Source: Procambarus clarkii (lineage: Eukaryota; Arthropoda; Malacostraca; Decapoda; Cambaridae). Taken from it: a stretch of DNA of 64,000 bases. The stretch covers positions 49,135,390-49,199,389 of the forward strand of contig NC_091171.1 of assembly GCF_040958095.1 (NCBI RefSeq), in the 5' to 3' direction. The notes under the pieces are model-generated. The model had not been told where the DNA came from, ran no database searches, and was given only the letters and a program-made list of their open reading frames with translations. Positions 1-40,195 of the stretch are shown here, in pieces; positions within the stretch are counted from its first letter, which is position 1, and the number at the start of each line of letters is the position of its first letter. Both the position numbers and the translations under genes were made by a program.

Positions 1-1059
1 GTCCACACTCTCCCACGGTCCACACTCTCCCACGGTCCACACACTCCCACGGTCCACACACTCCCAAGGTCCACACACTCCCACGGTCCACACTCCCACG
101 GTCCACACTCTTCCATGGTCCACACTCTCCCATGGTCCACACTCTCCCATGGTCCACACTCTCCCACGGTCCACATACTCCCTCGGTCCACACTCTCCCA
201 TGGTCCACACTCTACCATGGTCCACACACTCCCACGGTCCACACTCTCCCACGGTCCACACACTCCCACGGTCCACACACTCCCATGGTCCACACACTCC
301 CACGGTCCACACACTCCCACGGTCCACACTCTCCCACGGTCCACACTCTACCACGGTACACACACTCCCACGGTCCACACTCTCCCACGGTCCACACACT
401 CCCACGGTCCACACACTCCCACGGTCCACACTCTCCCATGGTTCACACACTCCCACGGTCCACACACTCCCACGGTCCACACTCCCACGGTCCACACACT
501 CCCACGGTCCACACACTCCCACGGTCCACACACTCCCACGGTCCACACTCCCACGGTCCACACTCCCACGGTCCACACTCTCCCACGGTCCACACTCTCC
601 CACGGTCCACACACTCCCACGGTCCACACTCTCCCACGGTCTACACACTCCCACGGTCCACACTCTCCCACGGTCTACACACTCCCACGGTCCACACTCT
701 CCCACGGTCCACACACTCCCACGGTCCACACTCTCCCATGGTTCACACACTCCCACGGTCCACACACTCCCACGGTCCACACTCCCACGGTCCACACTCT
801 CCCATGGTTCACACACTCCCACGGTCCACACACTCCCACGGTCCACACTCCCACGGTCCACACTCCCACGGTCCACACTCTCCCACGGTCCACACTCTCC
901 CACGGTCCACACTCCCACGGTCCACACTCTCCCATGGTTCACACACTCCCACGGTCCACACACTCCCACGGTCTACTCTCCCACGGTCCACACTCTCCCA
1001 CGGTCCACACTCCTACGGTCCACACTCTCCCACGGTCCACACTCTCCCACGGTCCACAC
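1..1059. repeat. 17-bp minisatellite, left part
   Basis: Tandem array of ctcccacggtccacact with 15- and 17-bp variants; it runs off the left window edge. Substitution variants (cccatgg, ctaccatgg, cctcgg) mark individual units. Positions 1-1057 match 13689-14745 almost perfectly in the same orientation; I see only two substitutions, both in the first 85 bases. Open frames here (VHTLPRSTLSHGPH type) exist in three plus frames and in minus frames, so they reflect the repeat and not a gene. The array stops abruptly at the palindrome arm. Confidence 0.97.
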
Positions 1060-1064
1060 TAGTA

Positions 1065-1206
1065 GTAGGGTGTAAGCGCCACAGGTCCCCATTTTTTTTT
1101 TTTGCCAGAGGACCCCTGTAGGGTGTAAGCGCCACAGGTCCCCATTTTTTTTTTTTGCCAGAGGACCCCTGTGGGGTGTAAGCGCCACAGGTCCCCATTT
1201 TTTTTT
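1065..1206 (+). repeat. 53-bp T-tract tandem repeat at outer end of left arm
   Basis: About 2.7 copies of a 53-bp unit that contains gtgtaagcgccacaggtccc, a run of 9-12 T, then gccagaggacccct. The mirror copy ends the right arm at 13312-13450, where one A run is 11 against 12 here. It caps both arm ends and is a candidate terminal signature of the element. Confidence 0.93.
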
Positions 1207-1779
1207 CAGGTCAAATATCCCCTTTGCGCCCCAAGGGTTTCAGGTAAATTTAGAAAATCGTGTGTAGCGCTTGGGGGTTTTCAGGTAAATTTTGTCAGTC
1301 GCAGATTTTAGAAGTAAGGATTTCTTATGAGAAAAATAATTTCCGAGACTTAGAAGTTTGTTAAAGCCTTATGGGAGAAATTCAAATAACGTGTGTAGCA
1401 CTTTAGGGCTTCCAGGAGAACTCTACGGACATATTTTACATGTTTTCAACTTACAAAATCGTCTATGTAAGCCTTAGTTATTCATATAAATTTAGAAAAT
1501 CACCTGTGTAAGTCATGGTTTTCAGGGTTTCGTACATCACACCCCCCTCCCTCCCCCCTTACCTCGCAATCTCTCACGTCACCTGTATTTACTTTGCGCC
1601 CAGCCAGCCAGTCGGCTCTTAATCTTATCTTATCTTCATAATATCTGGACCGTCCCTCCTCTCTCTCTCTCTCTCCTTTCATTCAGTTCAACTATTTTCC
1701 AACATCGTATGTTTGCTCCTTTTCATTAAGCAAGTCAGTATGTTTGCTCCTTTTCATTAAGCAAGTCAGTTTTACACAA

Positions 1780-2760
1780 ATAAATCATGTTAGTAAGCAA
1801 GTTCTAGCTCACGTTCCCCACCTTAGTCCCCTGTCGTATAATGAATACTATCATTCCAATCCCTCTAAAATTTAAAAATAATCATATTTCAAATGTAGTT
1901 CAATACAGTAATTAGTTACCAAGCTCCAGCTCTTGTCCTCCGCCTTAGCTCTCTCTCGTATCTTCGTTAGTATCAGTCCAATTTCCCTGAAATTTCTACC
2001 CTCTGTATTTCAGACATAGTTTAGTAAATGCAAACAATTATCAAACTCTAGCTCTTGTCCCCAGCTTAGTTCATTTGTACAAAATCATTAGTAACAGTCC
2101 AAATTCCCTGAGATTTTTAGCCTCTGTATTTCAGACGCCGTAAATAAGATCAAAACAGTTACCAAGCTCCAGCTCTCGTCCCCGCCTTAATTCTCTTTCG
2201 TATCTTTGTAAATAACCCATCAATTTCCCTAAAATTAAAAGCAGACATACTTCAAAGTTAGTAAATAAGATCAAGTCAGTTACTGAGCTCCAGCTCTCGT
2301 CCCCACCTTAGTTCTCTTTCGTATCTTTGTAAATAACCCATCAATTTCCCTGAAATTTTTACCCTCTGTATTTCAGACATAGTAAATATGAAGTAAACAA
2401 TTATAAAACTCTAGCTCTTGTCCTCTGTCCAAGCTCACTTTTGTAAATTCATTACTCTCAGTCCAAATCACCCAACTACATTTTCAGACATAGTAAATAA
2501 AAACCAGTTCAGTTATCAAGTTTCAAGACATAGTAAATAAAAACCAGTTCAGTTATCAAGTTTCAACTCTTGTGCCCCAGCTTAGTTCATTTGTGCAAGT
2601 TCTTTATTTTCCAACTAAATCACCTGAGATTTAAGATCACCTTATTTTCTAACGTAGTAAAATTAATCAGGGCATTAACCAAGTTCCATTCCCTCAGCCT
2701 TAGATCATCAGACATAAATATATTCGATCAAGTCCCTCTCCAGCCTATCTGTTTATCAGA
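1780..2760 (+). repeat. degenerate ~120-bp tandem units in left arm
   Basis: About eight diverged units share the order agctccagctctcgtcccc, ccttagttctctttcgta, catcaatttccctgaaat and tttcagacatagtaaata. A separate 40-bp exact duplication sits at about 2487-2566. Units are diverged from one another, yet each is matched nearly perfectly by its mirror in the right arm, so the arms were copied (or converted) much more recently than the internal repeats formed. Confidence 0.8.
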
Positions 2761-5700
2761 GTAATTACTTTACCCTTCTCATCCCCAACGTATCAATCCC
2801 CAACATATCAAAACCTTCAATAATCATACTGTATTTGCATATTTTCTCTATATTCAGCTGTGTTCTTCACATTTTGTCCATGTTTTCTGTGTTCACTCCA
2901 TGTTCTTCAAATGTTCACAGTCCCATTCAGTTCATATTTTCACAAGTATCTCCATTTTTTCTGTAATCTTTCTCTTAGTCTCATTACTTTCTCTACAAAT
3001 TCTAGTCATATTTTCTATGTTTTCATGTTCATCACATGTTCTCTTTACAACTTTTATACTCAATATTCATGCTAACTTCTATATTTTGTGTTCTTTGTCA
3101 ATATTCATGTTCTCTGTAAGTTCATATTCCCAGCATGTTCACTGTATTCATCAACTTTTCTTACATGTGTTCTTTACCATGTTCCCCATATGTTCTCTGG
3201 GTTTTTCCCCTTACATGTTATCTAACGTTCCTTAACTAAAAAATCTTTCACCAATCAACTAAAAACATAGTCACTTTCGTCATTTCTCAACTAAACTTAT
3301 TATCCAGTCAACTAAAAATAGTCAGAAATAGCCTCGTTCAACACTGTTCTTAACTAAACCAACCTTTCTCTTAGCTAAAATTGTCAAAGGAAACTTTTTT
3401 CAGCACTTTCTTAACAGGCGCTATGTTTCATCAAGAAAAATTGTCAAAGGAAACTTTCCAAAACTGTTCATAACTAGCTTTTATCCATCGTCAATCAACT
3501 AAAAATAATAACTTTCATCATTTCTTAACTAAACATATTCCCCATTCATCAGAAAATAACCGTGTTCATCATGTTTCATTGTCATTTCATAACTAAAATT
3601 ATCTGTCAATCATCAGAAAAGTCATGTTCATCATGTTTTGGCTTTTGCTCAACTAAAAGTATTCATCGGTCAACTAAAAATAGTTACTTCATCATGTTTC
3701 CTTGTCATTTCTTAACTGAAATATCACTTCTCTCATCTGAAAATAGTCAGGATTAACCTCATTCAACACCGTTCATAAGTAAAACAGCCTTTCGCTTAGC
3801 TAAAAATTGTCAAAGGAATCTTTTCAGCACTGTTCATAACTAACTTTATCCATAGTCAAGTAAGAAAATATAGTCAAAGATATCTATCATCGTCGTTCTT
3901 AACTGGCATTATACTTTGTGGAGCACTAAAATAGTCATTGTCGTCATATTTTGTCTTTTTCCTCAACTAAAAGAGTCAAATGTAACTTTTTCAACACTTT
4001 CGTAACTAAAATTATATGTCGCTAAGTAAGAAAAATAGTCAAAGGTGCTCTCCGTTACACCAAAGTTACTCTTCGAGAAATCAAAGACACTCTTCAATAC
4101 ATTAAGGACTTACTCAAAGACACCAAAGTTACACTCTAAGACATCCTTCGAGACATCAAAGACATCCTTTAAGACTTCAAGGGCACTCTTCGAGATATCA
4201 AAAGACACTCTCAAACACTCAAATTTACTCGCATCCTCAAAGTTATTCTCAGAGTCATCAAAAAGTTAATCTCAGTCATCAAAATGCTATTCTCTAAGTA
4301 GCCTTTCGTTCATCAGAGAAACTTTCTAAGACACCTTCGTTCATTAAAGTTAATCTCAGAGGCATAAACGTTATTCTTGGAGCTATCAAAATTAATCTCT
4401 AAAACAACAAAAGTTAATCTCTGTCATCAAAGTTAATCTGCAAGATATCTTCGAGACATCAAAGTTACTTTTCATTACATCAAAGACGCATTCAAATACT
4501 ACCCATGTTCTCAGAAGTCATTCTCTAAGCCATCAATGTTCTTCTCTAATACATAAAGTTATTCTCTATGTCATCAAAAAGTTATTCTCTGAGCTAACAA
4601 AATACTACTCATGTTCTCAAAGACATTCTCCAATTCATCAAAGTGGTTTCAAAGACATCAAAGTTAATCTCAGAGTTATCCAAAGACATTCTCAAAGTCA
4701 TCTAAAGTTATTCTCTAAGACATCAAAGTTATTCTAAGAGTTATCAAAAGTTATTCTCAGTCATGATATGTTATTCTCTAAGTAACCTTCCATTCATCAA
4801 AGACATTCTCTAAGCCCTCAAAGTTATTCTCTAAGACAACAAAGTCATTCCCAGTCATCAAAAAGTTATTCTTCGAAACATAAAATTTGCTCTGTAAGAT
4901 ATCTTCGTTCATCAAACTTATTCTCAGAGATATCTAAAGTTATTCTCAGAACAATCAAAAGTTATTCTAAGACAACAAAAGTTATTCTCAGAGCTACCCA
5001 AAGCTATTCTCAGAGTCACCTTCGTTCGTCAGAGAAACTTTCAAAAACATCTTTGTTCATCAAACTCGTTTTCAAAGTCATCAAAAGTTAATCTAAGACA
5101 TCTTCTTTCATCAAAGTTATTTTCAGAGACATCTAAAGTTATTCTCAGAGCTATCAAACTTGTTCTCAGAGACGTCAAATGTTATTCTCGAAGTCATCAA
5201 AGATATTTTCAGAGACATCTAAAGTTAATTTCTATGTTATAAAAGTTATTCTCAGAGACATCTAAAGTTAATCTTGGTCATCAAAGTTGTTCTCTAAACA
5301 TCAATGTTGTTCTCCAAGACATCAAAGATATTCTCAAAATCATAAAAGTTATTCCCAGAGCTATCAAAGTTAATCTCAGAGTTATCCAAAGATATTCTCA
5401 TGTCCACAAAAGTTATTCCAAGAGACGTCAAAGTTAATCTCAGACATCTTCGTTCATAAAAGTTATTCTCAGAGACATCTGAAGTTTTTCTCTAAGACAA
5501 CAAAGTCTTTCTCAGAGCTACCAAAGTTGTTCTCTAAGACATAAAAGTTATTCTCAGAGTCATCAAAGTGATCTCTAATTCACCTTCGTTCTCCCAAAGT
5601 TGTTCTCTAAGACACCTTCGTTCATCAAAGAAACTCTCCTTCTTCCATCATGTTATTCTTTAAGACATCTTCAGTCATAAAATTTCTCTCCAAAATGTAA

Positions 5701-5860
5701 CTAGTTCAGCTTTTCATACCAAACCTGCATTTCTGTTAAAACATATTTTCTTAGTTGCTTTACCCTAAAACTGTTCTCTGAACTACACTGTTCAAACCTA
5801 CGTAACCTATCCTCTCCACCCAATGTTACTTAGTTAACGTAACGTTCCTAAACCTAGCTT
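2761..5860 (+). repeat. AT-rich degenerate short repeats, left arm interior
   Basis: Three successive textures: T-rich sequence with recurring catgttct (2860-3230); units around aactaaaatagtca with gttcatcatgtt (3240-4040); and a long run of units near catcaaagttattctcagag (4040-5700). Short frames at 2860-3235, 3562-3756 and 4045-4269 are open only because of composition. No splice-flanked exon or protein motif is visible. Confidence 0.75.
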
Positions 5861-5869
5861 TACCTATCC

Positions 5870-6290
5870 TAACATAACTTACCTTACCTTACCTATCTTA
5901 CCTAACTTTACCTATCTTACCTAACTTAACCTGCATAACCTAACTTTACCTTTACCTTACCTTACCTATCTTACCTAACCTAACCTAACTTTACCTATGT
6001 TACCTTACCTTACCTACCTTTCCTAACTTAACCTATCTTACCTATCTTACCTAACTTACCTACATTACCTAACTTAACTTAACCTGCATAACCTAACTTT
6101 ACCTATCTTACCTAACTTAACTTTCATAACCTAACTTTACCTATCTTACCTAACTTAACTTTCATAACCTAACTTTACCTATCCTAACATAACTTACCTT
6201 ACCTTCCTTATCTTACCTAACTTTACCTATCCTATCCTAACCTAACTTGTCTTACCTAACTTAATCTTACATTCCCAAACTGATGTATCC
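5870..6290 (+). repeat. CCTAA-like (telomere-motif-like) degenerate tract, left arm
   Basis: Degenerate pentamer and hexamer units such as acctaactttacctatctt, including three consecutive perfect CCTAA at about 5975-5990. CCTAA is the complement of the arthropod telomere unit TTAGG. The mirror tract (TTAGG orientation) lies at about 8229-8650. The two tracts point away from each other across the spacer, the opposite of a head-to-head telomere fusion. Confidence 0.7.
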
Positions 6291-6404
6291 TAACTTATCT
6301 AGTCAAACCAGACATGATCTAACTTACATAAGTATTCCTTCTTGTCTTTTGTGTTTCGTCAATCATTGTCTCATATTCATTTACTCATTTCATTAGTTAA
6401 TTTC

Positions 6405-6790
6405 TCAAATGGTCACTCATGCATTTCAAGTGCTATTTGTTAGAGATTGGATATTTAAGCATTTCAAGTGCTATTTGTTAGAGATTGGATATTTAAGCAT
6501 TTCAAAGAATTATAATTTCTCAGATGGACGTTTTGCATTTCAAGTGCTATTTGTTAGAGATTGGATATTTAAGCATTTCAAAGAATTTTTTGTTATATAT
6601 GGGCATTTACTCATTTCAAGGGATAATTTCTCAAATGGACGTTTTTGCATTTCAAGTGTTATTTGTTTAAGATTGGGTATTTAACCATTTCAAAGGATTT
6701 TTGTTATATATGGGAACTTACTCGTTTCAAGGGCTAATTTCTCAAATGGTCATTTTTGCAGATCAAGGGTTATTTGTTAAAGTTCATCAA
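6405..6790 (+). repeat. degenerate repeats near the inner end of the left arm
   Basis: Units around tttcaagtgctatttgtta and gagattggatatttaagc recur with deletions. A 91-codon frame at 6409-6684 spans them and is duplicated exactly on the minus strand at 7835-8110. It is itself internally repetitive (YLLEIGYL and FKHFK recur), shows no domain, and I do not regard it as a gene. Confidence 0.75.
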
Positions 6791-7034
6791 GTTGCCCATA
6801 AGTTGTATTAGTAGGTTCTATCTTATGTTCTTATTCCTCAACCCCTTAACCTAACCTCTTGTAATCTTAGTGTATTTAGTAGGTTCTATCTTATGTTCTT
6901 ATTCCCCAACCCTTTAACCTAACCTTTCAGATGTAGTTTGTTGAATATATTATCCTTTTCCTAACCTTTCAGATGTAGTTTTGTTTCTCCTTTTTGTATA
7001 TTTTTACCCAAACCTTCTTTCCTTCTTTACTTTG

Positions 7035-7484
7035 TTTTCACATATAAGTTCATTCTTTATCATAGTAATAATAAAAATTACAATAGTAAAGAATCAGATC
7101 TACTAAGACTTGAAAATTGAGAAACAAGAGCTTAAGGGAGTGAGAGCATGAAAGAAGAGCAAGGAGTAAGAGAGAGGGGGTGGAAGAAAATGGGACCAAA
7201 GAAGAGAGAATGAGAGAGAGTGTGGGCATGGGAGCACTAAGACTTGAATTGAGAAAAAGAAAAACTAAGTGAATGAGAATGAGAGTGTGAGAATGGGAGC
7301 AATAAGACTTGAATTGAGAAAAAGAAAAACTAAGTGAATGAGAATGAGGGTGTGAGAATGGGAGCAATAAGACTTGAATTTGAGAAACAAGAGAGCATTT
7401 GAGCAAATAAGGGAGAGAGAGGGGGAGGAAGAGAGAGAATAAGGGAGAGAGATAGAAAAGGAGGGTTAGAAGGAGTAGGAGAAT
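7035..7484. other. unique spacer (loop) of the palindrome
   Basis: The only part of the 12.4-kb unit that is not mirrored. It is purine-rich on the plus strand and contains about 2.5 copies of a 65-bp unit (7220-7390; gggagcaataagacttgaat recurs at 7230, 7295 and 7360). A 162-codon minus-strand frame (7050-7538) is Leu/Ser/Phe-rich low complexity and overlaps the spacer-arm edge. I see no transposase or other protein motif. Confidence 0.9.
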
Positions 7485-10400
7485 CAAAGTAAAGAAGGAA
7501 AGAAGGTTTGGGTAAAAATATACAAAAAGGAGAAACAAAACTACATCTGAAAGGTTAGGAAAAGGATAATATATTCAACAAACTACATCTGAAAGGTTAG
7601 GTTAAAGGGTTGGGGAATAAGAACATAAGATAGAACCTACTAAATACACTAAGATTACAAGAGGTTAGGTTAAGGGGTTGAGGAATAAGAACATAAGATA
7701 GAACCTACTAATACAACTTATGGGCAACTTGATGAACTTTAACAAATAACCCTTGATCTGCAAAAATGACCATTTGAGAAATTAGCCCTTGAAACGAGTA
7801 AGTTCCCATATATAACAAAAATCCTTTGAAATGGTTAAATACCCAATCTTAAACAAATAACACTTGAAATGCAAAAACGTCCATTTGAGAAATTATCCCT
7901 TGAAATGAGTAAATGCCCATATATAACAAAAAATTCTTTGAAATGCTTAAATATCCAATCTCTAACAAATAGCACTTGAAATGCAAAACGTCCATCTGAG
8001 AAATTATAATTCTTTGAAATGCTTAAATATCCAATCTCTAACAAATAGCACTTGAAATGCTTAAATATCCAATCTCTAACAAATAGCACTTGAAATGCAT
8101 GAGTGACCATTTGAGAAATTAACTAATGAAATGAGTAAATGAATATGAGACAATGATTGACGAAACACAAAAGACAAGAAGGAATACTTATGTAAGTTAG
8201 ATCATGTCTGGTTTGACTAGATAAGTTAGGATACATCAGTTTGGGAATGTAAGATTAAGTTAGGTAAGACAAGTTAGGTTAGGATAGGATAGGTAAAGTT
8301 AGGTAAGATAAGGAAGGTAAGGTAAGTTATGTTAGGATAGGTAAAGTTAGGTTATGAAAGTTAAGTTAGGTAAGATAGGTAAAGTTAGGTTATGAAAGTT
8401 AAGTTAGGTAAGATAGGTAAAGTTAGGTTATGCAGGTTAAGTTAAGTTAGGTAATGTAGGTAAGTTAGGTAAGATAGGTAAGATAGGTTAAGTTAGGAAA
8501 GGTAGGTAAGGTAAGGTAACATAGGTAAAGTTAGGTTAGGTTAGGTAAGATAGGTAAGGTAAGGTAAAGGTAAAGTTAGGTTATGCAGGTTAAGTTAGGT
8601 AAGATAGGTAAAGTTAGGTAAGATAGGTAAGGTAAGGTAAGTTATGTTAGGATAGGTAAAGCTAGGTTTAGGAACGTTACGTTAACTAAGTAACATTGGG
8701 TGGAGAGGATAGGTTACGTAGGTTTGAACAGTGTAGTTCAGAGAACAGTTTTAGGGTAAAGCAACTAAGAAAATATGTTTTAACAGAAATGCAGGTTTGG
8801 TATGAAAAGCTGAACTAGTTACATTTTGGAGAGAAATTTTATGACTGAAGATGTCTTAAAGAATAACATGATGGAAGAAGGAGAGTTTCTTTGATGAACG
8901 AAGGTGTCTTAGAGAACAACTTTGGGAGAACGAAGGTGAATTAGAGATCACTTTGATGACTCTGAGAATAACTTTTATGTCTTAGAGAACAACTTTGGTA
9001 GCTCTGAGAAAGACTTTGTTGTCTTAGAGAAAAACTTCAGATGTCTCTGAGAATAACTTTTATGAACGAAGATGTCTGAGATTAACTTTGACGTCTCTTG
9101 GAATAACTTTTGTGGACATGAGAATATCTTTGGATAACTCTGAGATTAACTTTGATAGCTCTGGGAATAACTTTTATGATTTTGAGAATATCTTTGATGT
9201 CTTGGAGAACAACATTGATGTTTAGAGAACAACTTTGATGACCAAGATTAACTTTAGATGTCTCTGAGAATAACTTTTATAACATAGAAATTAACTTTAG
9301 ATGTCTCTGAAAATATCTTTGATGACTTCGAGAATAACATTTGACGTCTCTGAGAACAAGTTTGATAGCTCTGAGAATAACTTTAGATGTCTCTGAAAAT
9401 AACTTTGATGAAAGAAGATGTCTTAGATTAACTTTTGATGACTTTGAAAACGAGTTTGATGAACAAAGATGTTTTGAAAGTTTCTCTGACGAACGAAGGT
9501 GACTCTGAGAATAGCTTTGGGTAGCTCTGAGAATAACTTTTGTTGTCTTAGAATAACTTTTGATTGTTCTGAGAATAACTTTAGATATCTCTGAGAATAA
9601 GTTTGATGAACGAAGATATCTTACAGAGCAAATTTTATGTTTCGAAGAATAACTTTTTGATGACTGGGAATGACTTTGTTGTCTTAGAGAATAACTTTGA
9701 GGGCTTAGAGAATGTCTTTGATGAATGGAAGGTTACTTAGAGAATAACATATCATGACTGAGAATAACTTTTGATAACTCTTAGAATAACTTTGATGTCT
9801 TAGAGAATAACTTTAGATGACTTTGAGAATGTCTTTGGATAACTCTGAGATTAACTTTGATGTCTTTGAAACCACTTTGATGAATTGGAGAATGTCTTTG
9901 AGAACATGAGTAGTATTTTGTTAGCTCAGAGAATAACTTTTTGATGACATAGAGAATAACTTTATGTATTAGAGAAGAACATTGATGGCTTAGAGAATGA
10001 CTTCTGAGAACATGGGTAGTATTTGAATGCGTCTTTGATGTAATGAAAAGTAACTTTGATGTCTCGAAGATATCTTGCAGATTAACTTTGATGACAGAGA
10101 TTAACTTTTGTTGTTTTAGAGATTAATTTTGATAGCTCCAAGAATAACGTTTATGCCTCTGAGATTAACTTTAATGAACGAAGGTGTCTTAGAAAGTTTC
10201 TCTGATGAACGAAAGGCTACTTAGAGAATAGCATTTTGATGACTGAGATTAACTTTTTGATGACTCTGAGAATAACTTTGAGGATGCGAGTAAATTTGAG
10301 TGTTTGAGAGTGTCTTTTGATATCTCGAAGAGTGCCCTTGAAGTCTTAAAGGATGTCTTTGATGTCTCGAAGGATGTCTTAGAGTGTAACTTTGGTGTCT

Positions 10401-13400
10401 TTGAGTAAGTCCTTAATGTATTGAAGAGTGTCTTTGATTTCTCGAAGAGTAACTTTGGTGTAACGGAGAGCACCTTTGACTATTTTTCTTACTTAGCGAC
10501 ATATAATTTTAGTTACGAAAGTGTTGAAAAAGTTACATTTGACTCTTTTAGTTGAGGAAAAAGACAAAATATGACGACAATGACTATTTTAGTGCTCCAC
10601 AAAGTATAATGCCAGTTAAGAACGACGATGATAGATATCTTTGACTATATTTTCTTACTTGACTATGGATAAAGTTAGTTATGAACAGTGCTGAAAAGAT
10701 TCCTTTGACAATTTTTAGCTAAGCGAAAGGCTGTTTTACTTATGAACGGTGTTGAATGAGGTTAATCCTGACTATTTTCAGATGAGAGAAGTGATATTTC
10801 AGTTAAGAAATGACAAGGAAACATGATGAAGTAACTATTTTTAGTTGACCGATGAATACTTTTAGTTGAGCAAAAGCCAAAACATGATGAACATGACTTT
10901 TCTGATGATTGACAGATAATTTTAGTTATGAAATGACAATGAAACATGATGAACACGGTTATTTTCTGATGAATGGGGAATATGTTTAGTTAAGAAATGA
11001 TGAAAGTTATTATTTTTAGTTGATTGACGATGGATAAAAGCTAGTTATGAACAGTTTTGGAAAGTTTCCTTTGACAATTTTTCTTGATGAAACATAGCGC
11101 CTGTTAAGAAAGTGCTGAAAAAAGTTTCCTTTGACAATTTTAGCTAAGAGAAAGGTTGTTTTAGTTAAGAACAGTGTTGAACGAGGCTATTTCTGACTAT
11201 TTTTAGTTGACTGGATAATAAGTTTAGTTGAGAAATGACGAAAGTGACTATGTTTTTAGTTGATTGGTGAAAGATTTTTTAGTTAAGGAACGTTAGATAA
11301 CATGTAAGGGGAAAAACCCAGAGAACATATGGGGAACATGGTAAAGAACACATGTAAGAAAAGTTGATGAATACAGTGAACATGCTGGGAATATGAACTT
11401 ACAGAGAACATGAATATTGACAAAGAACACAAAATATAGAAGTTAGCATGAATATTGAGTATAAAAGTTGTAAAGAGAACATGTGATGAACATGAAAACA
11501 TAGAAAATATGACTAGAATTTGTAGAGAAAGTAATGAGACTAAGAGAAAGATTACAGAAAAAATGGAGATACTTGTGAAAATATGAACTGAATGGGACTG
11601 TGAACATTTGAAGAACATGGAGTGAACACAGAAAACATGGACAAAATGTGAAGAACACAGCTGAATATAGAGAAAATATGCAAATACAGTATGATTATTG
11701 AAGGTTTTGATATGTTGGGGATTGATACGTTGGGGATGAGAAGGGTAAAGTAATTACTCTGATAAACAGATAGGCTGGAGAGGGACTTGATCGAATATAT
11801 TTATGTCTGATGATCTAAGGCTGAGGGAATGGAACTTGGTTAATGCCCTGATTAATTTTACTACGTTAGAAAATAAGGTGATCTTAAATCTCAGGTGATT
11901 TAGTTGGAAAATAAAGAACTTGCACAAATGAACTAAGCTGGGGCACAAGAGTTGAAACTTGATAACTGAACTGGTTTTTATTTACTATGTCTTGAAACTT
12001 GATAACTGAACTGGTTTTTATTTACTATGTCTGAAAATGTAGTTGGGTGATTTGGACTGAGAGTAATGAATTTACAAAAGTGAGCTTGGACAGAGGACAA
12101 GAGCTAGAGTTTTATAATTGTTTACTTCATATTTACTATGTCTGAAATACAGAGGGTAAAAATTTCAGGGAAATTGATGGGTTATTTACAAAGATACGAA
12201 AGAGAACTAAGGTGGGGACGAGAGCTGGAGCTCAGTAACTGACTTGATCTTATTTACTAACTTTGAAGTATGTCTGCTTTTAATTTTAGGGAAATTGATG
12301 GGTTATTTACAAAGATACGAAAGAGAATTAAGGCGGGGACGAGAGCTGGAGCTTGGTAACTGTTTTGATCTTATTTACGGCGTCTGAAATACAGAGGCTA
12401 AAAATCTCAGGGAATTTGGACTGTTACTAATGATTTTGTACAAATGAACTAAGCTGGGGACAAGAGCTAGAGTTTGATAATTGTTTGCATTTACTAAACT
12501 ATGTCTGAAATACAGAGGGTAGAAATTTCAGGGAAATTGGACTGATACTAACGAAGATACGAGAGAGAGCTAAGGCGGAGGACAAGAGCTGGAGCTTGGT
12601 AACTAATTACTGTATTGAACTACATTTGAAATATGATTATTTTTAAATTTTAGAGGGATTGGAATGATAGTATTCATTATACGACAGGGGACTAAGGTGG
12701 GGAACGTGAGCTAGAACTTGCTTACTAACATGATTTATTTGTGTAAAACTGACTTGCTTAATGAAAAGGAGCAAACATACTGACTTGCTTAATGAAAAGG
12801 AGCAAACATACGATGTTGGAAAATAGTTGAACTGAATGAAAGGAGAGAGAGAGAGAGGAGGGACGGTCCAGATATTATGAAGATAAGATAAGATTAAGAG
12901 CCGACTGGCTGGCTGGGCGCAAAGTAAATACAGGTGACGTGAGAGATTGCGAGGTAAGGGGGGAGGGAGGGGGGTGTGATGTACGAAACCCTGAAAACCA
13001 TGACTTACACAGGTGATTTTCTAAATTTATATGAATAACTAAGGCTTACATAGACGATTTTGTAAGTTGAAAACATGTAAAATATGTCCGTAGAGTTCTC
13101 CTGGAAGCCCTAAAGTGCTACACACGTTATTTGAATTTCTCCCATAAGGCTTTAACAAACTTCTAAGTCTCGGAAATTATTTTTCTCATAAGAAATCCTT
13201 ACTTCTAAAATCTGCGACTGACAAAATTTACCTGAAAACCCCCAAGCGCTACACACGATTTTCTAAATTTACCTGAAACCCTTGGGGCGCAAAGGGGATA
13301 TTTGACCTGAAAAAAAAATGGGGACCTGTGGCGCTTACACCCCACAGGGGTCCTCTGGCAAAAAAAAAAATGGGGACCTGTGGCGCTTACACCCTACAGG

Positions 13401-13455
13401 GGTCCTCTGGCAAAAAAAAAAAATGGGGACCTGTGGCGCTTACACCCTACTACTA
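7485..13455 (-). repeat. right arm of giant inverted repeat
   Basis: Reverse complement of the left arm. Six minus-strand frames (for example 7835-8110, 10249-10473, 11283-11618 and 11754-11948) have translations identical to the plus-strand frames of the left arm. The outer end ...ccctactacta stops at 13455, and the plus-strand minisatellite resumes at 13456. Its internal repeat content mirrors the left arm, including a TTAGG-like tract (about 8229-8650) and the 53-bp A-tract repeat (13312-13450). Confidence 0.95.
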
Positions 13456-15541
13456 CACACTCCCACGGTCCACACTCTCCCACGGTCCACACACTCCCAC
13501 GGTCCACACACTCCCATGGTCCACACACTCCCACGGTCCACACACTCCCACGGTCCACACTCTCCCACGGTCCACACTCTCCCACGGTCTACACTCTCCC
13601 ACGGTCCACACTCTCCCACAGTCCACACTCTCCCACGGTCCACACTCTCCCACGGTCCACATTCTCCTATGGTCCACACTCTCCCATGGTCCACACTCTC
13701 CCACGGTCCACACTCTCCCACGGTCCACACACTCCCACGGTCCACACACTCCCACGGTCCACACACCCCCACGGTCCACACTCCCACGGTCCACACTCTT
13801 CCATGGTCCACACTCTCCCATGGTCCACACTCTCCCATGGTCCACACTCTCCCACGGTCCACATACTCCCTCGGTCCACACTCTCCCATGGTCCACACTC
13901 TACCATGGTCCACACACTCCCACGGTCCACACTCTCCCACGGTCCACACACTCCCACGGTCCACACACTCCCATGGTCCACACACTCCCACGGTCCACAC
14001 ACTCCCACGGTCCACACTCTCCCACGGTCCACACTCTACCACGGTACACACACTCCCACGGTCCACACTCTCCCACGGTCCACACACTCCCACGGTCCAC
14101 ACACTCCCACGGTCCACACTCTCCCATGGTTCACACACTCCCACGGTCCACACACTCCCACGGTCCACACTCCCACGGTCCACACACTCCCACGGTCCAC
14201 ACACTCCCACGGTCCACACACTCCCACGGTCCACACTCCCACGGTCCACACTCCCACGGTCCACACTCTCCCACGGTCCACACTCTCCCACGGTCCACAC
14301 ACTCCCACGGTCCACACTCTCCCACGGTCTACACACTCCCACGGTCCACACTCTCCCACGGTCTACACACTCCCACGGTCCACACTCTCCCACGGTCCAC
14401 ACACTCCCACGGTCCACACTCTCCCATGGTTCACACACTCCCACGGTCCACACACTCCCACGGTCCACACTCCCACGGTCCACACTCTCCCATGGTTCAC
14501 ACACTCCCACGGTCCACACACTCCCACGGTCCACACTCCCACGGTCCACACTCCCACGGTCCACACTCTCCCACGGTCCACACTCTCCCACGGTCCACAC
14601 TCCCACGGTCCACACTCTCCCATGGTTCACACACTCCCACGGTCCACACACTCCCACGGTCTACTCTCCCACGGTCCACACTCTCCCACGGTCCACACTC
14701 CTACGGTCCACACTCTCCCACGGTCCACACTCTCCCACGGTCCACTCTCCCACGGTCCACACTCTCCCACGGTCCACACTCCCACGGTCCACACTCTCCC
14801 ACGGTCCACACTCTCCCACGGTCCACACTCCCACGGTCCACACTCCCACGGTCCACACTCTCCCATGGTTCACACACTCACTGTCCACACTCTCCCACGG
14901 TCCACACTCTCCCACGATTCACACACTCCCACGGTCCACACTCTCCCACGGTCCACACTCTCCCACGGTCCACACTCTCCCACGGTCCACACTCTCCCAC
15001 GGTCCACACACTCCCACGGTCCACACTCTCCCACGGTCCACACTCTCCCACGGTCCACACACTCCCACGGTCCACACTCTCCCACGGTCCACACTCTCCC
15101 ACGGTCCACACTCTCCCACGGTCCACACTCTCCCACGGTCCACACTCTCCCACGGTCCACACTCGCCCACGGTTCACACACTCCCACGGTCCACACTCTC
15201 CCACGGTCCACACACTCTCACGGTCCACACTCTCCCACGGTCCACACTCTCCCACGGTCCACACTCTTCCACGGTTCACACACTCCCACGGTCCACACTC
15301 TCCCACGGTCCACACACTCTCACGGTCCACACTCTCCCACGGTCCACACTCTCCCACGGTCCACACTCTCCCACGGTCCACACTCTCCCACGGTCCACAC
15401 TCGCCCACGGTCCACACACTCCCACGGTCCACACTCTCCCACGGTCCACACACTCTCACGGTCCACACTCTCCCACGGTCCACACTCTCCCACGGTCCAC
15501 ACTCTTCCACGGTTCACACACTCCCACGGTCCACACTCCCA
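13456..15541. repeat. 17-bp minisatellite, right part
   Basis: Same ctcccacggtccacact array and same strand as 1-1059, resuming right after the palindrome. Frames of 770, 739 and 724 codons overlap here in all three plus frames, and 405 codons on the minus strand, because 17-bp units translate in rotating frames without stops. The array decays at cacagtgaagactgagagct. I reject a coding role. Confidence 0.97.
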
Positions 15542-27973: not shown

Positions 27974-28148
27974 CCCCAGGAAGCAGCCCGTGACAGCTGA
28001 CTAACTCCCAGGTACCTATTTACTGCTAGGTAACAGGGGCACTTAGGGTGAAAGAAACTTTGCCCATTTGTTTCTGCCTCGTGCGGGAATCGAACCCGCG
28101 CCACAGAATTACGAGTCCTGCGCGCTATCCACCAGGCTACGAGGCCCC
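27974..28148 (-). mobile_element. tRNA-derived SINE with tRNA-Thr-like head
   Basis: On the minus strand a 70-nt tRNA-like head (28145 to 28076) has a perfect 7-bp acceptor stem (GCCTCGT with ACGAGGC), a perfect 5-bp T stem around TTCGATT (B box GGTTCGATTCC), and an anticodon stem CAGGA/TTCTG with loop CTCGTAA. That places anticodon CGT (Thr). The D arm pairs poorly. The body continues with gtttctttcaccctaagtg, ctgttacctagcagtaaata and gtcacgggctgcttcctggg, then ends at a CA tract. The body matches the SINE at 50.4 kb. It would be transcribed by RNA polymerase III from its internal A and B boxes and mobilised in trans by a LINE. It lacks the 3' portion present at 50.4 kb. Confidence 0.85.
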
Positions 28149-28294: not shown

Positions 28295-29758
28295 CTATTG
28301 GGCTCTATCATATCTACACTTGAAACTGTGTATGGAGTCAGCCTCCACCACAACACTCCCTAATGCATTCCATTTGTCAACCACTCTGACACTGAAAAAG
28401 TTCCTTCTAACGTCCCTGTGGCTCATGTGGGTACTCAGTTTCCACTTGTGTCTCCTTGTTCGCGTCCCACCAGTGTTGAATAGTTTATCCTTGTTTACCC
28501 GATCGATTCCACTGAGGATTTTGTAGGCTGTGATCATGTCTCCCCTTACTCTTCTGTCTTCCAGTGTCGTGAGGTGCATTTCCCTCAGTCTTTCCTCGTA
28601 ACTCATGCCTCTTAGTTCTGGGACTAGTCTAGTGGAATACCTTTGAACTTTTTCCACCTTCGTCTTGTGCTTGACAAGGTACGGGCTCCATGCTGGGGCC
28701 GCATACTCCAGGATTGGTCTTACATATGTGGTGTACAAGATTCTGAATGATTCCTTACACAGGTTCCTGAACGCTGTTCTGATGTTAGCCAGCCTCGCAT
28801 ATGCCGCAGACGTTATTCTTTTTATGTGGGCTTCAGGAGACAGGTTTGATGTGATATCAACTCCTAGATCTTTCTCTCTGTCCTTTTCATTAAGTACTTC
28901 ATCTCCTATTCTGTATCTTGTGTCTGGCCTCCTGTTTCCACTGCCTAGTTTCATTACTTTGCATTTACTCGGGTTGAACTTCAACAGCCATTTGTTGGAC
29001 CATTCACTCAGTCTGTCTAGGTCATCTTGTAGCCTCCTACTATCATCCTCTGTTTCAATCCTCCTCATAATTTTTGCATCATCAGCAAACATTGAGAGAA
29101 ACGATTCTATACCCTCTGTCAGATCATTTACATATATCAGAAACAGTACAGGTCCAAGGACTGACCCCTGCGGGATTCCACTTGTAACGTCTCACCAATC
29201 TGAGACCTCACCCCTCACACTGACTCGTTGTCTCCTGTTGCTTAGGTACTCGTTTATCCAATGGAGTACCTTCCCTTTCACTCCAGCCTGCATCTCCAGC
29301 TTTTTCACTAGCCTCTTGTGTGGTACTGTATCAAAGGCTTTCTGGCAATCCAAAAATATGCAGTCTGCCCACCCTTCTCTTTCTTGCCTGATTTTTGTTG
29401 CCTGGTCGTTGAATTCAAGTAACCCTGTGAGGCAGGACTTGCCATCCCTGAACCCATGTTGATGCTGTGTTACAAAGTTCTTTCGCTCCAGATGTTTCAC
29501 TAGCTTTCTTCGCACAATCTTCTCCATCAGCTTGCATGGTATGCAGGTTAGGGACAGTGGCCTGTAGTTCAGTGCCTCCTGTCTATCCCCTTTCTTGTAT
29601 ATCGGGACTACGTTAGCTGCTTTCCAAATTTCTGGCAGTTCCCCTGTTGCCAGTGATTTGTTATACACTATGGAGAGTGGCAGGCACAGTTCTTCTGCTC
29701 CTTCCTTTAGTATCCAAGGGGAGATTCCATCTGGCCCTATAGCCTTTGTCACATTCAA
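28295..29758 (-). pseudogene. reverse transcriptase domain, single in-frame stop
   Basis: One continuous reading frame of about 487 codons, interrupted by a single TGA at 29192-29194. Ordered motifs: AIGPDGISPWILKEG; NYRPLSLTCIPCKLMEKIV; QHGFRDGKSCLTGLLEF; FLDCQKAFDTVPHKRL (motif A, first catalytic Asp); TSGIPQGSVLGPVLFLIY (motif B); FADDAKI (motif C, catalytic Asp pair); WSNKWLLKFNPSKCKVMK; then the conserved thumb/C-terminal part LSPEAHIKRITSAAYARL, LEYAAPAWSPYL and SFKCRYDRAQ stop. The TGA follows EVSDW where the sister copy at 18.26 kb has CGT (Arg), so it may be a recent mutation. All catalytic residues are kept. The enzyme would act at target-primed reverse transcription. Frameshifts upstream and the missing endonuclease make the copy inactive as it stands. 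Confidence 0.92.
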
Positions 29759-29825
29759 CTCTAGTAAACACTTCCTTACTTCCCCGCTGGTAATCTCAAA
29801 CTCTTCCAGTGGTTCCTGGTTAACC

Positions 29826-30385
29826 TTATCCCTCTCTTATCTCTGGAATTTCTCCTTGCTCTAAGGTGAAGACCTCCTGGAATTTCTTATTCAGTTCCTC
29901 ACACACTTCCTTGTCGTTTGTAGTGAATCCTTCTGCCCCTATCCTTAATTTCATAACCTGTTCCTTTACTGTTGTTTTTTCTCCTGATGTGGCTATGCAG
30001 CAATTTAGGCTGAGTCTTTGCCTTGCTTGCGATGTCATTTTCGTATTATCTTTCTGCCTCTCTTCTCATCCTGACATATTCATTCCTGGCACTCTAGTAT
30101 CTTTCTCTGCTCTCAAGTGTCCTGTTATTCCTATAGTTTCTCCATAAACATTTACTTTGCTGCTTAGCTAGCCTACATCTCTGATTAAACCATAGGTTTC
30201 TCATCTTCATTTCACTGTTTTCCTTTTGGACTGGGACAAACTTGTTTGCTGCGTCCTTGCACTTCTGCGTGATGTAATCCATCATATCTTGGGCCGTCTT
30301 TTCCCTGAGCTCTGTTTCCCATGCTATATCTGCTAGGCATTTTCTTATCTCCTCATAGTTTCCCTTTCGGTATGCTAACCGAAAT
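29826..30385 (-). pseudogene. LINE ORF region upstream of RT, frameshifted
   Basis: Encodes the linker between endonuclease and RT in this family. Visible pieces are MMDYITQKCKDAANKFVPVQ and NLWFNQRCRLAKQQSKCLWR in one frame (30285-30094), then VMKLRIGAEGFTTNDKEV and LNKKFQEVFTLEQGEIPE in another (30038-29826), ending at a stop before the RT frame. The two frame changes show decay. It is cut at 30385 by the GT tract. Confidence 0.8.
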
Positions 30386-34060: not shown

Positions 34061-34196
34061 ATCCGACAATCACTGTCTACACTTATGGTTCTGTCCAACC
34101 GTCTACTGGACGGACTGCAGCAGCAGCATGTAGGTTGTACAGCAACAATACTTGCACCCACACTGTCAGGGTCAACACCGGGCTGGCCTCAACACC
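34061..34196 (+). pseudogene. RNase H domain N-terminal remnant of a retroelement
   Basis: In one plus frame the sequence reads TVYTYGSVQPSTGRTAAAAC then RLYSNNTCTHTVRVNTGLAS. This has the form of the first strand of retroelement RNase H, (I/V)YTDGS...TGRAGAA, where the Asp is catalytic; here it is Tyr, so the domain would be dead. RNase H removes the RNA strand of the RNA-DNA hybrid. The sequence breaks off into the 36-bp minisatellite where the TEL-A...DS part of the domain is expected, and the C-terminal part reappears at 40237. Confidence 0.6.
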
Positions 34197-37100
34197 AACA
34201 ACTAGCACCACCACCACCACTAACTACCACCCAACAACTAGCACCACCACCACTACTAACTACCACCCAACAACTAGCACCACCACCACCACTACTAACT
34301 ACCACCCAACAACTAGCACCACCACCACTACTAACTACCACCCAACAACTAGCACCACCACCACCACCACTAACTACCACCCAACAACTAGCACCACCAC
34401 CACCACTACTAACTACCACCCAACAACTAGCACCACCACCACCACTACTAACTACCACCCAACAACTAGCACCACCACCACCACTAACTACCACCCAACA
34501 ACTAGCACCACCACCACTACTAACTACCACCCAACAACTAGCACCACCACCACCACCACTAACTACCACCCAACAACTAGCACCACCACCACCACTACTA
34601 ACTACCACCCAACAACTAGCACCACCACCACCAATAACTACCACCCAACAACTAGCACCACCACCACTACTAACTACCACCCAACAACTAGCACCACCAC
34701 CACCACTACTAACTACCACCCAACAACTAGCACCACCACCACCACTAACTACCACCCAACAACTAGCACCACCACCACCACCACTAACTACCACCCAACA
34801 ACTAGCACAACCACCACCACTACTAACTACCACCCAACAACTAGCACCACCACCACCACCACTAACTACCACCCAACAACTAGCACCACCACCACCACCA
34901 CTAACTACCACCCAACAACTAGCACCACCACCACCACCACTAACTACCACCCAACAACTAGCACCACCACCACCACCACTAACTACCACCCAACAACTAG
35001 CACCACCACCACCACTAACTACCACCCAACAACTAGCACCACCACCACCACTAACTACCACCCAACAACTAGTACCACCACCACCACCACTAACTACCAC
35101 CCAACAACTACCACCACCACCACCACTAACTACCACCCAACAACTAGCACCACCACCACCACTAACAACCACCCAACAACTAGCACCACCACCACCACCA
35201 CTAACTACCACCCAACAACTAGCACCACCACCACCACCACTAACTACCACCCAACAACTAGCACCACCACCACCACCACTAACTACCACCCAACAACTAC
35301 CACCACCACCACCACTAACTACCACCCAACAACTAGCACCACCACCACCACTAACAACCACCCAACAACTAGCACCACCACCACCACCACTAACTACCAC
35401 CCAACAACTAGCACCACCACCACCACTAACTACCACCCAACAACTAGCACCACCACCACCACTAACTACCACCCAACAACTAGCACTACCACCACCACTA
35501 ACTACCACCCAACAACTAGCACCACCACCACCACTAACTACCACCCAACAACTAGCACCACCACCACCACCACTAACTACCACCCAACAACTAGCACCAC
35601 CACCACCACTAACTACCACCCAACAACTAGCACCACCACCACCATTAACTACCACCCAACAACTAGCACCACCACCACCACTAACTACCACCCAACAACT
35701 AGCACCACCACCACCACTAACTACCACCCAACAACTAGCACCACCACCACCATTAACTACCACCCAACAACTAGCACTACCACCACCACTAACTACCACC
35801 CAACAACTAGCACCACCACCACCACTAACAACCACCCAACAACTAGCACTACTACCACCAATAACTACCACCCAACAACTAGCACCACCACCACCACTAA
35901 CTACCACCCAACAACTAGCACCACCACCACCACTAACTACCACCCAACAACTAGCACCACCACCACCACTACTAACTACCACCCAACAACTTGCAGCACC
36001 ACCACCACCACTAACTACCACCCAACAACTAGCACTACCACCACCACTAACTACCACCCAACAACTAGCACCACCACCACCACTAACTACCACCCAACAA
36101 CTAGCACCACCACCACCACTAACTACCACCCAACAACTAGCACCACCACCACCACCACTAACTACCACCCAACAACTTGCAGCACCACCACCACCACTAA
36201 CTACCACCCAACAACTAGCACTACCACCACCACTAACTACCACCCAACAACTAGCACCACCACCACCACTAACTACCACCCAACAACTAGCACCACCACC
36301 ACCACCACTAACTACCACCCAACAACTAGCACCACCACCACCCAACAACTTGCCACCCAACCACCTAACTACCACCCTAGCTACCACCCAAACTACCACC
36401 CAACAACTTGCAGCACCACCACCACCACTAACTACCACCCAACAACTAGCACTACCACCACCACTAACTACCACCCAACAACTAGCACCACCACCACCAC
36501 TAACAACCACCCAACAACTAGCACCACCACCACCACCACTAACTACCACCCAGCAACTAGCACCACCACCACCACCACTAACTACCACCCAACAACTACC
36601 ACCACCACCACCACTAACTACCACCCAACAACTAGCACCACCACCACCACCACTAACTACCACCCAACAACTAGCACCACCACCACCACTAACTACCACC
36701 CAACAACTAGCACCACCACCACCACTAACTACCACCCAACAACTAGCACCACCACCACCATTAACTACCACCCAACAACTAGCACCACCACCACCACTAA
36801 CTACCACCCAACAACTAGCACCACCACCACCACTAACTACCACCCAACAACTAGCACCACCACCACCATTAACTACCACCCAACAACTAGCACTACCACC
36901 ACCACTAACTACCACCCAACAACTAGCACCACCACCACCACTAACAACCACCCAACAACTAGCACTACTACCACCAATAACTACCACCCAACAACTAGCA
37001 CCACCACCACCACCACTAACTACCACCCAACAACTAGCACCACCACCACCACTAACTACCACCCAACAACTAGCACCACCACCACCACTACTAACTACCA

Positions 37101-40100: not shown

Positions 40101-40195
40101 CACCACCACTAACTACCACCCAACAACTAGCACCACCACCACCACTAACTACCACCCAACAACTAGCACCACCACCACCACTAACTACCACTACA
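34197..40195. repeat. 6-kb minisatellite of 33/36/39-bp units
   Basis: About 170 copies of a unit containing caacaactagcaccaccacc followed by (cca)n ctaactaccac. Unit length varies by 3 bp through CCA copy number, so frames persist: one plus frame gives QQLAPPPPLTTT for 2056 codons (34085-40255), another TSTTTTTNYHPT, and the minus strand GGGASCWVVVS for 1255 codons. Two indels (about 37927 and 39039) swap the first two registers without a stop. This is repeat behaviour, not conserved protein coding. A block of about 1.12 kb is duplicated (markers at 36351 and 37470). Confidence 0.97.

What the first reader, a model, noticed from the sequence alone, without database searches (positions are those of the whole stretch)
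1060..13455. 12.4-kb near-perfect palindrome resembling a giant foldback element inserted in a minisatellite
Seen: arms of about 5.97 kb, nearly identical, a 450-bp unpaired spacer, and internally repetitive arms. The flanking 17-bp array is on the same strand on both sides. CACAC is present at both edges, and deleting the insert plus one CACAC restores a normal array unit. Known: Drosophila FB-type foldback elements have long inverted repeats built of short tandem repeats. Inferred: this is an unusually large, non-autonomous foldback-type element. Arm near-identity despite strongly diverged internal repeats implies recent formation or arm-to-arm conversion.
Basis: partly seen in the sequence, partly recalled or inferred. 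Interest (0 to 1): 0.75.

Follow-up and report, generated by a model that had tools for sequence, protein, structure and literature searches.

The report
Giant palindromic Polinton-ended mobile element
A 12.4-kb stretch of gene-free mirror-image DNA in this animal genome is one copy of a many-copy mobile element whose ends match those of Polintons (virus-like jumping DNA) in the same genome, and its two halves appear to keep being copied from each other.

Summary
The palindrome is real: arms 1061-7037 and 7482-13454, 2 substitutions and 3 small gaps apart, spacer 444 bp. It is not a one-off, nor an assembly artefact. Its 25-bp end occurs 339+333 times (≤2 mismatches; control 0) in the 4.03-Gb genome; of the 100 ends listed, 78 form 39 inverted pairs, median span 12,476 bp. 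Eighteen of 21 distinct copies read at both ends have a 6-bp target-site duplication. One 13.9-kb copy with the same ends carries PolB, an A32-like ATPase and an rve-chromodomain integrase: a Polinton/Maverick. AGTAGTAGGG also lies 3.6-3.8 kb upstream of PolB in 6 of 6 other loci. So this is a non-autonomous, gene-free palindrome with Polinton ends. Of 15 further-examined long copies, 13 are palindromes and 2 carry other genes. Spacers differ by up to 8.8% between copies, arms within a copy by 0-0.15%: arms are re-copied from each other. The CACAC "duplication" is not supported: this copy has no direct repeat at its true ends, and its left array duplicates 13689-14745, so its flanks are rearranged or mis-assembled.

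The parts
1061..7037 (+). left arm (5,977 bp), outer end to spacer
   Evidence: Inverted match to 7482-13454, 2 substitutions and 3 gap events; true edge from other copies.
7038..7481 (+). unpaired central spacer, 444 bp, purine-rich; homologous spacers in other palindromic copies
   Evidence: 9 of 9 copies compared share it, 91.2-100% pairwise; 40 of 40 scored genome matches cover all 444 bp at 98-100% (1252 candidates of which 40 scored).
7482..13454 (-). right arm (5,973 bp), mirror image of the left
1061..1085 (+). left terminal motif AGTAGTAGGGTGTAAGCGCCACAGG
   Evidence: 339+333 genome matches with up to 2 mismatches, 0 in the reversed-pattern control.
13430..13454 (-). right terminal motif, the same 25 bp inverted
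1065..1206 (+). 53-bp terminal tandem repeat, 2.7 copies, with T-tract
   Evidence: a 50-bp version of the unit stands at the ends of the PolB-bearing copy.
13310..13450 (-). the same 52-53-bp terminal tandem repeat, inverted
1914..2423 (+). 121-bp tandem repeat in left arm (mirror 12095-12604)
4515..5578 (+). 21/43-bp AAGTTATTCTCAGAG-type repeats in left arm (mirror about 8941-10003)
5851..6264 (+). degenerate AACCT/CTTAC repeats in left arm, like the arthropod telomere unit TTAGG (likeness recalled); mirror about 8250-8668
6379..6782 (+). 111-bp (38-bp) tandem repeat next to the spacer; mirror about 7740-8141
1..1060 (+). left flanking 17-bp minisatellite; 1-1057 is a direct copy of 13689-14745
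13455..13688 (+). array segment between the element and the duplicated segment
13689..14745 (+). right-hand copy of the duplicated array segment (1,055 of 1,057 identical, no gaps)

Best explanation
The 12,394-bp insert is a non-autonomous mobile element with Polinton/Maverick ends. Shown: a many-copy family with the same sharp ends and 6-bp target-site duplications; a Polinton with PolB and integrase bearing the same 25-bp end and same kind of terminal repeats; a shared central spacer; near-identical arms within each palindromic copy. Inferred: the Polinton integrase and protein-primed PolB act on these ends in trans. Because both strands are self-complementary, a displaced single strand can snap back into a hairpin with 6-kb stem and 0.4-0.6-kb loop; mismatch repair or fill-in copies one arm onto the other, and the product is integrated with a 6-bp staggered cut. 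So the element behaves as a replicative satellite of Polintons. My odds: Polinton-ended non-autonomous element 0.9; mobilised in trans by Polinton proteins 0.75; arms re-copied from each other, by whatever route, 0.85; the snap-back route specifically 0.4. The window copy's own junctions are secondary: either two ends that joined two different array positions, or recombination or an assembly haplotype switch between two insertions in one array.
For: End motif 339+333 times, control 0. 39 inverted pairs among the 100 exact ends listed, median span 12,476 bp, 30 of 39 at 12-14 kb. 6-bp duplications in 13 of 13 pairs plus 5 of 8 further loci (by eye): 18 of 21. Copy C4:22356565-22370440 with the same 25-bp ends and duplication GTCAAG holds PolB (PF03175, E 3.4e-18 on a 700-aa middle piece), A32-like ATPase (E 1.1e-7), rve (E 5.6e-9) and chromodomain (E 6.2e-6); its first 0.6-0.7 kb is 80-82% identical to the window arm end and its terminal repeats are 98.5% alike over 1,013 bp. 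AGTAGTAGGG 3.56-3.77 kb upstream of PolB at 6 of 6 other loci. Palindromes: 7 distinct loci whole, 1 in part (C23), 5 of 5 more at one internal site at 99.5-100%. Spacers 91.2-100% alike between 9 copies while arms within a copy are 99.85-100% alike. 8 of 40 spacer hits fall in a listed end pair, each within 52 bp of its centre. Literature: 6-bp TSD for Polinton (PMC10045372, passage); 5-6 bp (PMC8547959, passage).
Against: The window copy itself has no duplication at its true ends, nor do C41 and C20b. No expression, excision or mobilisation evidence exists. The inner arms show no similarity to the 10.9 kb read of the Polinton C4, so the palindrome is not a simple deletion of that copy. In the outer 900 bp, the two arms of a copy are each other's nearest in only 14 of 22 copies; 4 of the 8 exceptions are allelic or duplicate copies, but C11, C12b, C37 and the mini copy C1a are real exceptions, so ends also exchange between copies. 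The first copies fetched were the best matches to the window end, so the palindromic share is biased upwards. PF03175 was not reported when the whole 1309-aa frame was scanned, only in the middle piece and in the genome search. One only of the 95 PolB matches lies in a listed pair, but only 100 of 672 ends were listed.
Confidence: 0.85

Rival explanations
1. A foldback element of the Drosophila FB or Galileo kind: long inverted repeats made of short repeats, moved by a cut-and-paste transposase.
For: Same architecture: giant inverted repeats, internal tandem repeats, little or no coding capacity.
Against: 6-bp duplications in 18 of 21 copies, whereas FB makes 9 bp and Galileo 7 bp (recalled). 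Ends are shared with a PolB- and integrase-bearing Polinton.
Confidence: 0.04
2. A fold-back assembly or library artefact.
For: Palindromes are hard to assemble. Flanks are mirror images at C41 (98.2% over 1,038 bp) and C20b (99.25% over 1,068 bp), and the window copy's left array duplicates the right one. No reads could be examined.
Against: Same-strand flanks at the window copy and intact 6-bp duplications at 18 of 21 copies; at least 13 distinct palindromic loci with one shared spacer.
Confidence: 0.02
3. Independent, recent palindrome formation at each site, without arm-to-arm copying.
For: Arms are nearly identical within each copy.
Against: Nine of nine copies share the same non-palindromic central spacer (91.2-100% pairwise); 8 spacers inside listed pairs sit at the centre. 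One ancestral palindrome was inherited, so arms should have diverged as spacers did (up to 8.8%) unless re-copied.
Confidence: 0.04
4. The arms are homogenised by ordinary gene conversion in the chromosome, not during an extrachromosomal, Polinton-dependent replication step.
For: Close inverted repeats convert readily (general knowledge); C37 and C12b show partly diverged arms, which fits occasional rather than per-cycle copying.
Against: Nothing decisive; insertion with intact 6-bp duplications and almost no arm differences in 7 distinct loci fits copying at or near each transposition.
Confidence: 0.45

Closest known systems
Polinton/Maverick self-synthesising DNA transposons
   Same: Ends (25 bp identical to a PolB- and integrase-bearing copy here), terminal tandem repeats, 6-bp duplications in the family.
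   Different: No PolB, integrase, ATPase or other genes in the window copy; terminal repeats fill the whole element except 444 bp; 12.4 kb rather than the 15-25 kb given in PMC6431247 (section 10 read).
Foldback elements (Drosophila FB, Galileo)
   Same: Giant inverted repeats with internal tandem repeats and a short middle.
   Different: Duplication length and ends; FB and Galileo values recalled; Galileo papers seen only as search listings.
Palindromic defective genomes of adenovirus (symmetric recombinants)
   Same: Linear, protein-primed replicon with the same end on both sides and a mirror-image body. Recalled; one search listed no paper on it.
   Different: Those are viral laboratory products; this is a chromosomal family of many copies.
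Endogenous nimaviruses of crustaceans
   Same: Host-repeat insertions in crustaceans, some with a retroviral-type integrase, inverted ends and BIR genes (PMC10871703, abstract and passages).
   Different: Genomes of 265-285 kb with a different 46-bp inverted repeat and (AT)n target in the case quoted; no such genes in the window element.

Membership tests
Polinton/Maverick | 6-bp target-site duplication | tested here: met
   For the family: 18 of 21 distinct copies. For the window copy itself: NOT met; also not met at C41 and C20b.
Polinton/Maverick | long terminal inverted repeats beginning 5'-AG (AG rule recalled) | tested here: met
   Window ends AGTAGTAGGG...CCCTACTACT; same 25 bp at a PolB-bearing copy; AGTAGTAGGG at 6 of 6 other PolB loci, one end each.
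Polinton/Maverick | PolB and retroviral-like integrase encoded (autonomous member) | tested here: not met
   No such gene in the window copy. It is therefore filed only as a non-autonomous element with Polinton ends, not as a Polinton.
Polinton/Maverick | moved by Polinton proteins | not testable with these tools
   Needs a mobilisation assay or evidence of extrachromosomal forms.
Foldback (FB) of Drosophila | 9-bp target-site duplication (recalled) | tested here: not met
   6 bp in 18 of 21 copies.
Foldback (FB) of Drosophila | long inverted repeats built of tandem repeats | tested here: met
Galileo / P superfamily | P-like transposase in an autonomous relative | not tested
   Not searched; the relative with the same ends encodes an rve integrase instead.

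The most novel reading that the evidence does not exclude
A self-complementary replicative satellite of Polintons: one ancestral palindrome, parasitic on Polinton PolB and integrase, whose strands snap back and are copied arm onto arm in each cycle, has spread to at least 40 and perhaps several hundred sites of one genome, beside a second same-ended class (99 scored copies) that carries IAP-like and other genes. The natural copies would be a direct record of Polinton single-strand replication.
Probability: 0.4. Interest if true: 0.85.

Novelty: new variant of a known kind. Interest (0 to 1): 0.66.

Why it matters
How Polintons replicate and move is largely inferred from their genes. A large natural family that is all palindrome, with Polinton ends and arms kept identical, gives a way to test whether they pass through a single-stranded, snap-back stage: arm differences, hairpin forms and end exchange are measurable. 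It also shows that non-autonomous Polinton relatives can be numerous and as long as autonomous ones, and that a 12-kb palindrome can persist at many sites. I found no description of such an element in the held open-access library by searches; Repbase, Dfam and subscription papers were not searched.

Tried and rejected
Rejected: assembly artefact as the origin of the palindrome (13 palindromic loci of different flanks); one-off duplication; FB membership; CACAC duplication; simple insertion into a contiguous array.

Led nowhere: Rfam gave one tRNA and nothing in the element. The terminal 19-mer had 0 hits in viral contigs. The 425-aa frame of the gene-bearing class had no relative in viral contigs and none in the PDB. 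The 232-aa frame had none in phages or the PDB. A fold of the 232-aa frame (mean pLDDT 58.9) gave no PDB match at E 0.001 or better; the two best rows are an SPX complex, and many of the next rows are macro domains: weak. Insertion preference for minisatellites is not shown: 22 of 30 end flanks abut tandem arrays, but 70% of window 15539-64000 is such arrays and no random background was drawn. The window pattern with GGTCCCCATTTTTT did not complete. Bases just left of the window read N, so whether the duplicated array goes on there is unknown.

Full report
WHAT IS THERE. The window is C22:49135390-49199389 of a 4.03-Gb assembly of 2,308 contigs. Arms are made of several kinds of tandem repeat, and each strand is pyrimidine-rich in its 5' half and purine-rich in its 3' half. 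Frames inside it are short; six of them (95-174 aa) have no Pfam match above cut-off.

IT IS A FAMILY. A search with the first 201 bp of the arm gave 61 matches at about 22 places, mostly inverted pairs 12-14 kb apart (only 40 of 1,017 candidates were scored). The 25-bp end, up to 2 mismatches, occurs 339 times forward and 333 reverse, 0 in the control. Of the 100 exact ends listed, 78 form 39 inverted pairs and 22 stand alone; 30 of 39 pairs span 12-14 kb, median 12,476 bp, extremes 1,888 and 21,418 bp.

TRUE ENDS AND DUPLICATIONS. Flanks of other copies fix the ends as AGTAGTAGGG...CCCTACTACT. All 13 complete pairs have an exact 6-bp duplication (for example ATTGGG, GTAGCG, GATCTG, GTCAAG). 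Among eight further distinct loci (read by eye), five have one (GAGTGT, ACTACC, GTCGCA, GCTGTG, and CCCCCC, which lies in a C-run and is weak), and three do not: the window copy, C41 and C20b. Total 18 of 21. C1438 and C1306 share flanks and count once; C11 occurs in both calls and counts once.

POLINTON. The DNA polymerase family PF03175 has 95 scored matches in the genome. One lies inside a listed end pair, C4:22356565-22370440 (13,876 bp, duplication GTCAAG, inserted beside a stretch that reads like the reverse-transcriptase frame in the window, by eye). Read in pieces, that copy holds a 1,309-aa PolB frame (PF03175 E 3.4e-18 on the middle 700 aa; not reported when the whole frame was scanned), an A32-like ATPase (PF04665 E 1.1e-7), an integrase with rve (E 5.6e-9) and chromodomain (E 6.2e-6), and further frames without Pfam match that I take, from memory of gene order, for capsid and protease genes. 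PHROGs agree for polymerase and transposase/integrase; the PDB comparison lists chromodomains and one integrase. Its terminal repeats are 98.5% alike over 1,013 bp, carry a 50-bp version of the 53-bp terminal unit, and match the window arm end at 80-82% over about 0.65-0.7 kb. At 6 of 6 other PolB loci that I chose from the plus-strand rows, AGTAGTAGGG lies 3.56-3.77 kb upstream of the PolB match (other end and duplication not read). Six base pairs is the published duplication length of Polintons (PMC10045372, passage; 5-6 bp in PMC8547959, passage).

PALINDROMES AND GENE-BEARING COPIES. Of the copies fetched whole, seven distinct loci are full palindromes: C22, C11, C41, C18a, C20a, C20b and C1438/C1306, with arms of 5.94-6.50 kb. 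C23, fetched to 8 kb, is palindromic at its centre. Five more (C2a, C3a, C3b, C10, C15), tested at one 300-400-bp site about 4 kb inside, are mirror images at 99.5-100%. Two, C44 and C37, are different: C44 has arms of 3.5 kb at 99.9%, C37 has partly rearranged arms at 96%, and both have a centre of about 6 kb with the same frames: IAP-like BIR (E 2.7e-14) and BIR-RING (E 7.4e-10, 1.3e-12) frames, three related frames of 232, 345 and 242 aa in C44 that may be macro-like (weak), and a 425-aa frame of unknown kind. So 13 of 15 such loci are palindromes, a share biased by picking window-like ends and spans of 12-13 kb. The 425-aa frame has at least 99 copies (of 624 candidates), 94-100% identical, 93 of 99 without an inner stop.

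ARM COPYING. The spacers of nine copies are homologous, 91.2-100% pairwise. Forty of forty scored genome matches to the window spacer cover all 444 bp at 98-100%, and the eight that fall in a listed pair sit within 52 bp of its centre. The palindromic plan is therefore inherited. Yet arms within a copy differ by 0-10 substitutions in 5.9-6.5 kb (0-0.15%), while spacers differ by up to 8.8% between copies and arms of different copies match in separate blocks, mostly at 83-98% (at most 4 blocks per pair printed; allelic or duplicate pairs excepted). Arms must be re-copied from each other. Against a tidy picture, in the outer 900 bp the two arms are nearest to each other in only 14 of 22 copies: four exceptions are allelic or duplicate copies, but C11, C12b, C37 and the mini copy C1a are not, so ends are also exchanged between copies.

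HOW IT PROBABLY WORKS. Polintons are thought to copy themselves with a protein-primed polymerase and to insert with a retroviral-type integrase (PMC6431247, section 10). An element whose two ends are those of a Polinton could use both in trans. If a single strand is displaced during copying, this element would fold along its whole length; repair of the hairpin would make the arms identical. These steps are inferred. Chromosomal gene conversion explains the arms about as well.

THE WINDOW COPY. It is not a clean insertion. The six bases at its true ends are CACACT and ACACAC. Its left array, 1-1057, is a copy (1,055 of 1,057) of 13689-14745, ending at the element, while the array to the right of the element starts with a different segment, 13455-13688. 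Three explanations remain: the two ends joined different array positions on sister molecules; two insertions recombined; or the assembly switched haplotype inside the element. C41 and C20b, with mirror-image flanks, show that such loci are troubled. Bases left of the window read N.

VERDICT. A real, many-copy, non-autonomous element with Polinton ends and a palindromic body: a new variant of a known kind.

Noticed in passing
L016:4572-10613 region with L017; L022 and L023 (copies C44 and C37): A second class with the same ends carries IAP-like BIR and BIR-RING frames, three related 232-345-aa frames and a 425-aa frame; the 425-aa frame has at least 99 copies genome-wide, 93 of 99 without inner stops. 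A numerous same-ended element with anti-apoptosis-like cargo deserves its own study.
   Followed up: partly
L059, L060 (copy C4:22356565-22370440): A Polinton with open PolB and integrase frames and near-identical terminal repeats; described only.
   Followed up: partly
L012, L013 (C41) and L018-L021 (C20a, C20b): Flanking tandem arrays are mirror images around two palindromic copies (98.2% and 99.25%), and the right flank of C20a is identical over 1,091 bp to that of C20b: palindrome-driven rearrangement or mis-assembly.
   Followed up: partly
L029, L030 (C1:62975433-62977320): A 1,888-bp mini element with the same ends, 6-bp duplication TGGGTG and 548-bp inverted repeats at 90%.
   Followed up: partly
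C19:42214459-42235876 and C15:48355847-48379682 of G000: Same-ended pairs of 21.4 and 23.8 kb, possibly longer autonomous copies or nested insertions; not fetched.
   Followed up: no
window 15539-64000: 70% of this stretch is tandem arrays of many different units, including about 6 kb of a 36-bp CCAACAACTAGCACCACC unit at 34195-40191.
   Followed up: no
window 28295-29836 (-): Two neighbouring frames match the two ends of the reverse-transcriptase domain (RVT_1, E 1.6e-14 and 1e-15), a LINE-like remnant; a tRNA-Thr (CGT) lies at 28075-28145 (-).
   Followed up: partly
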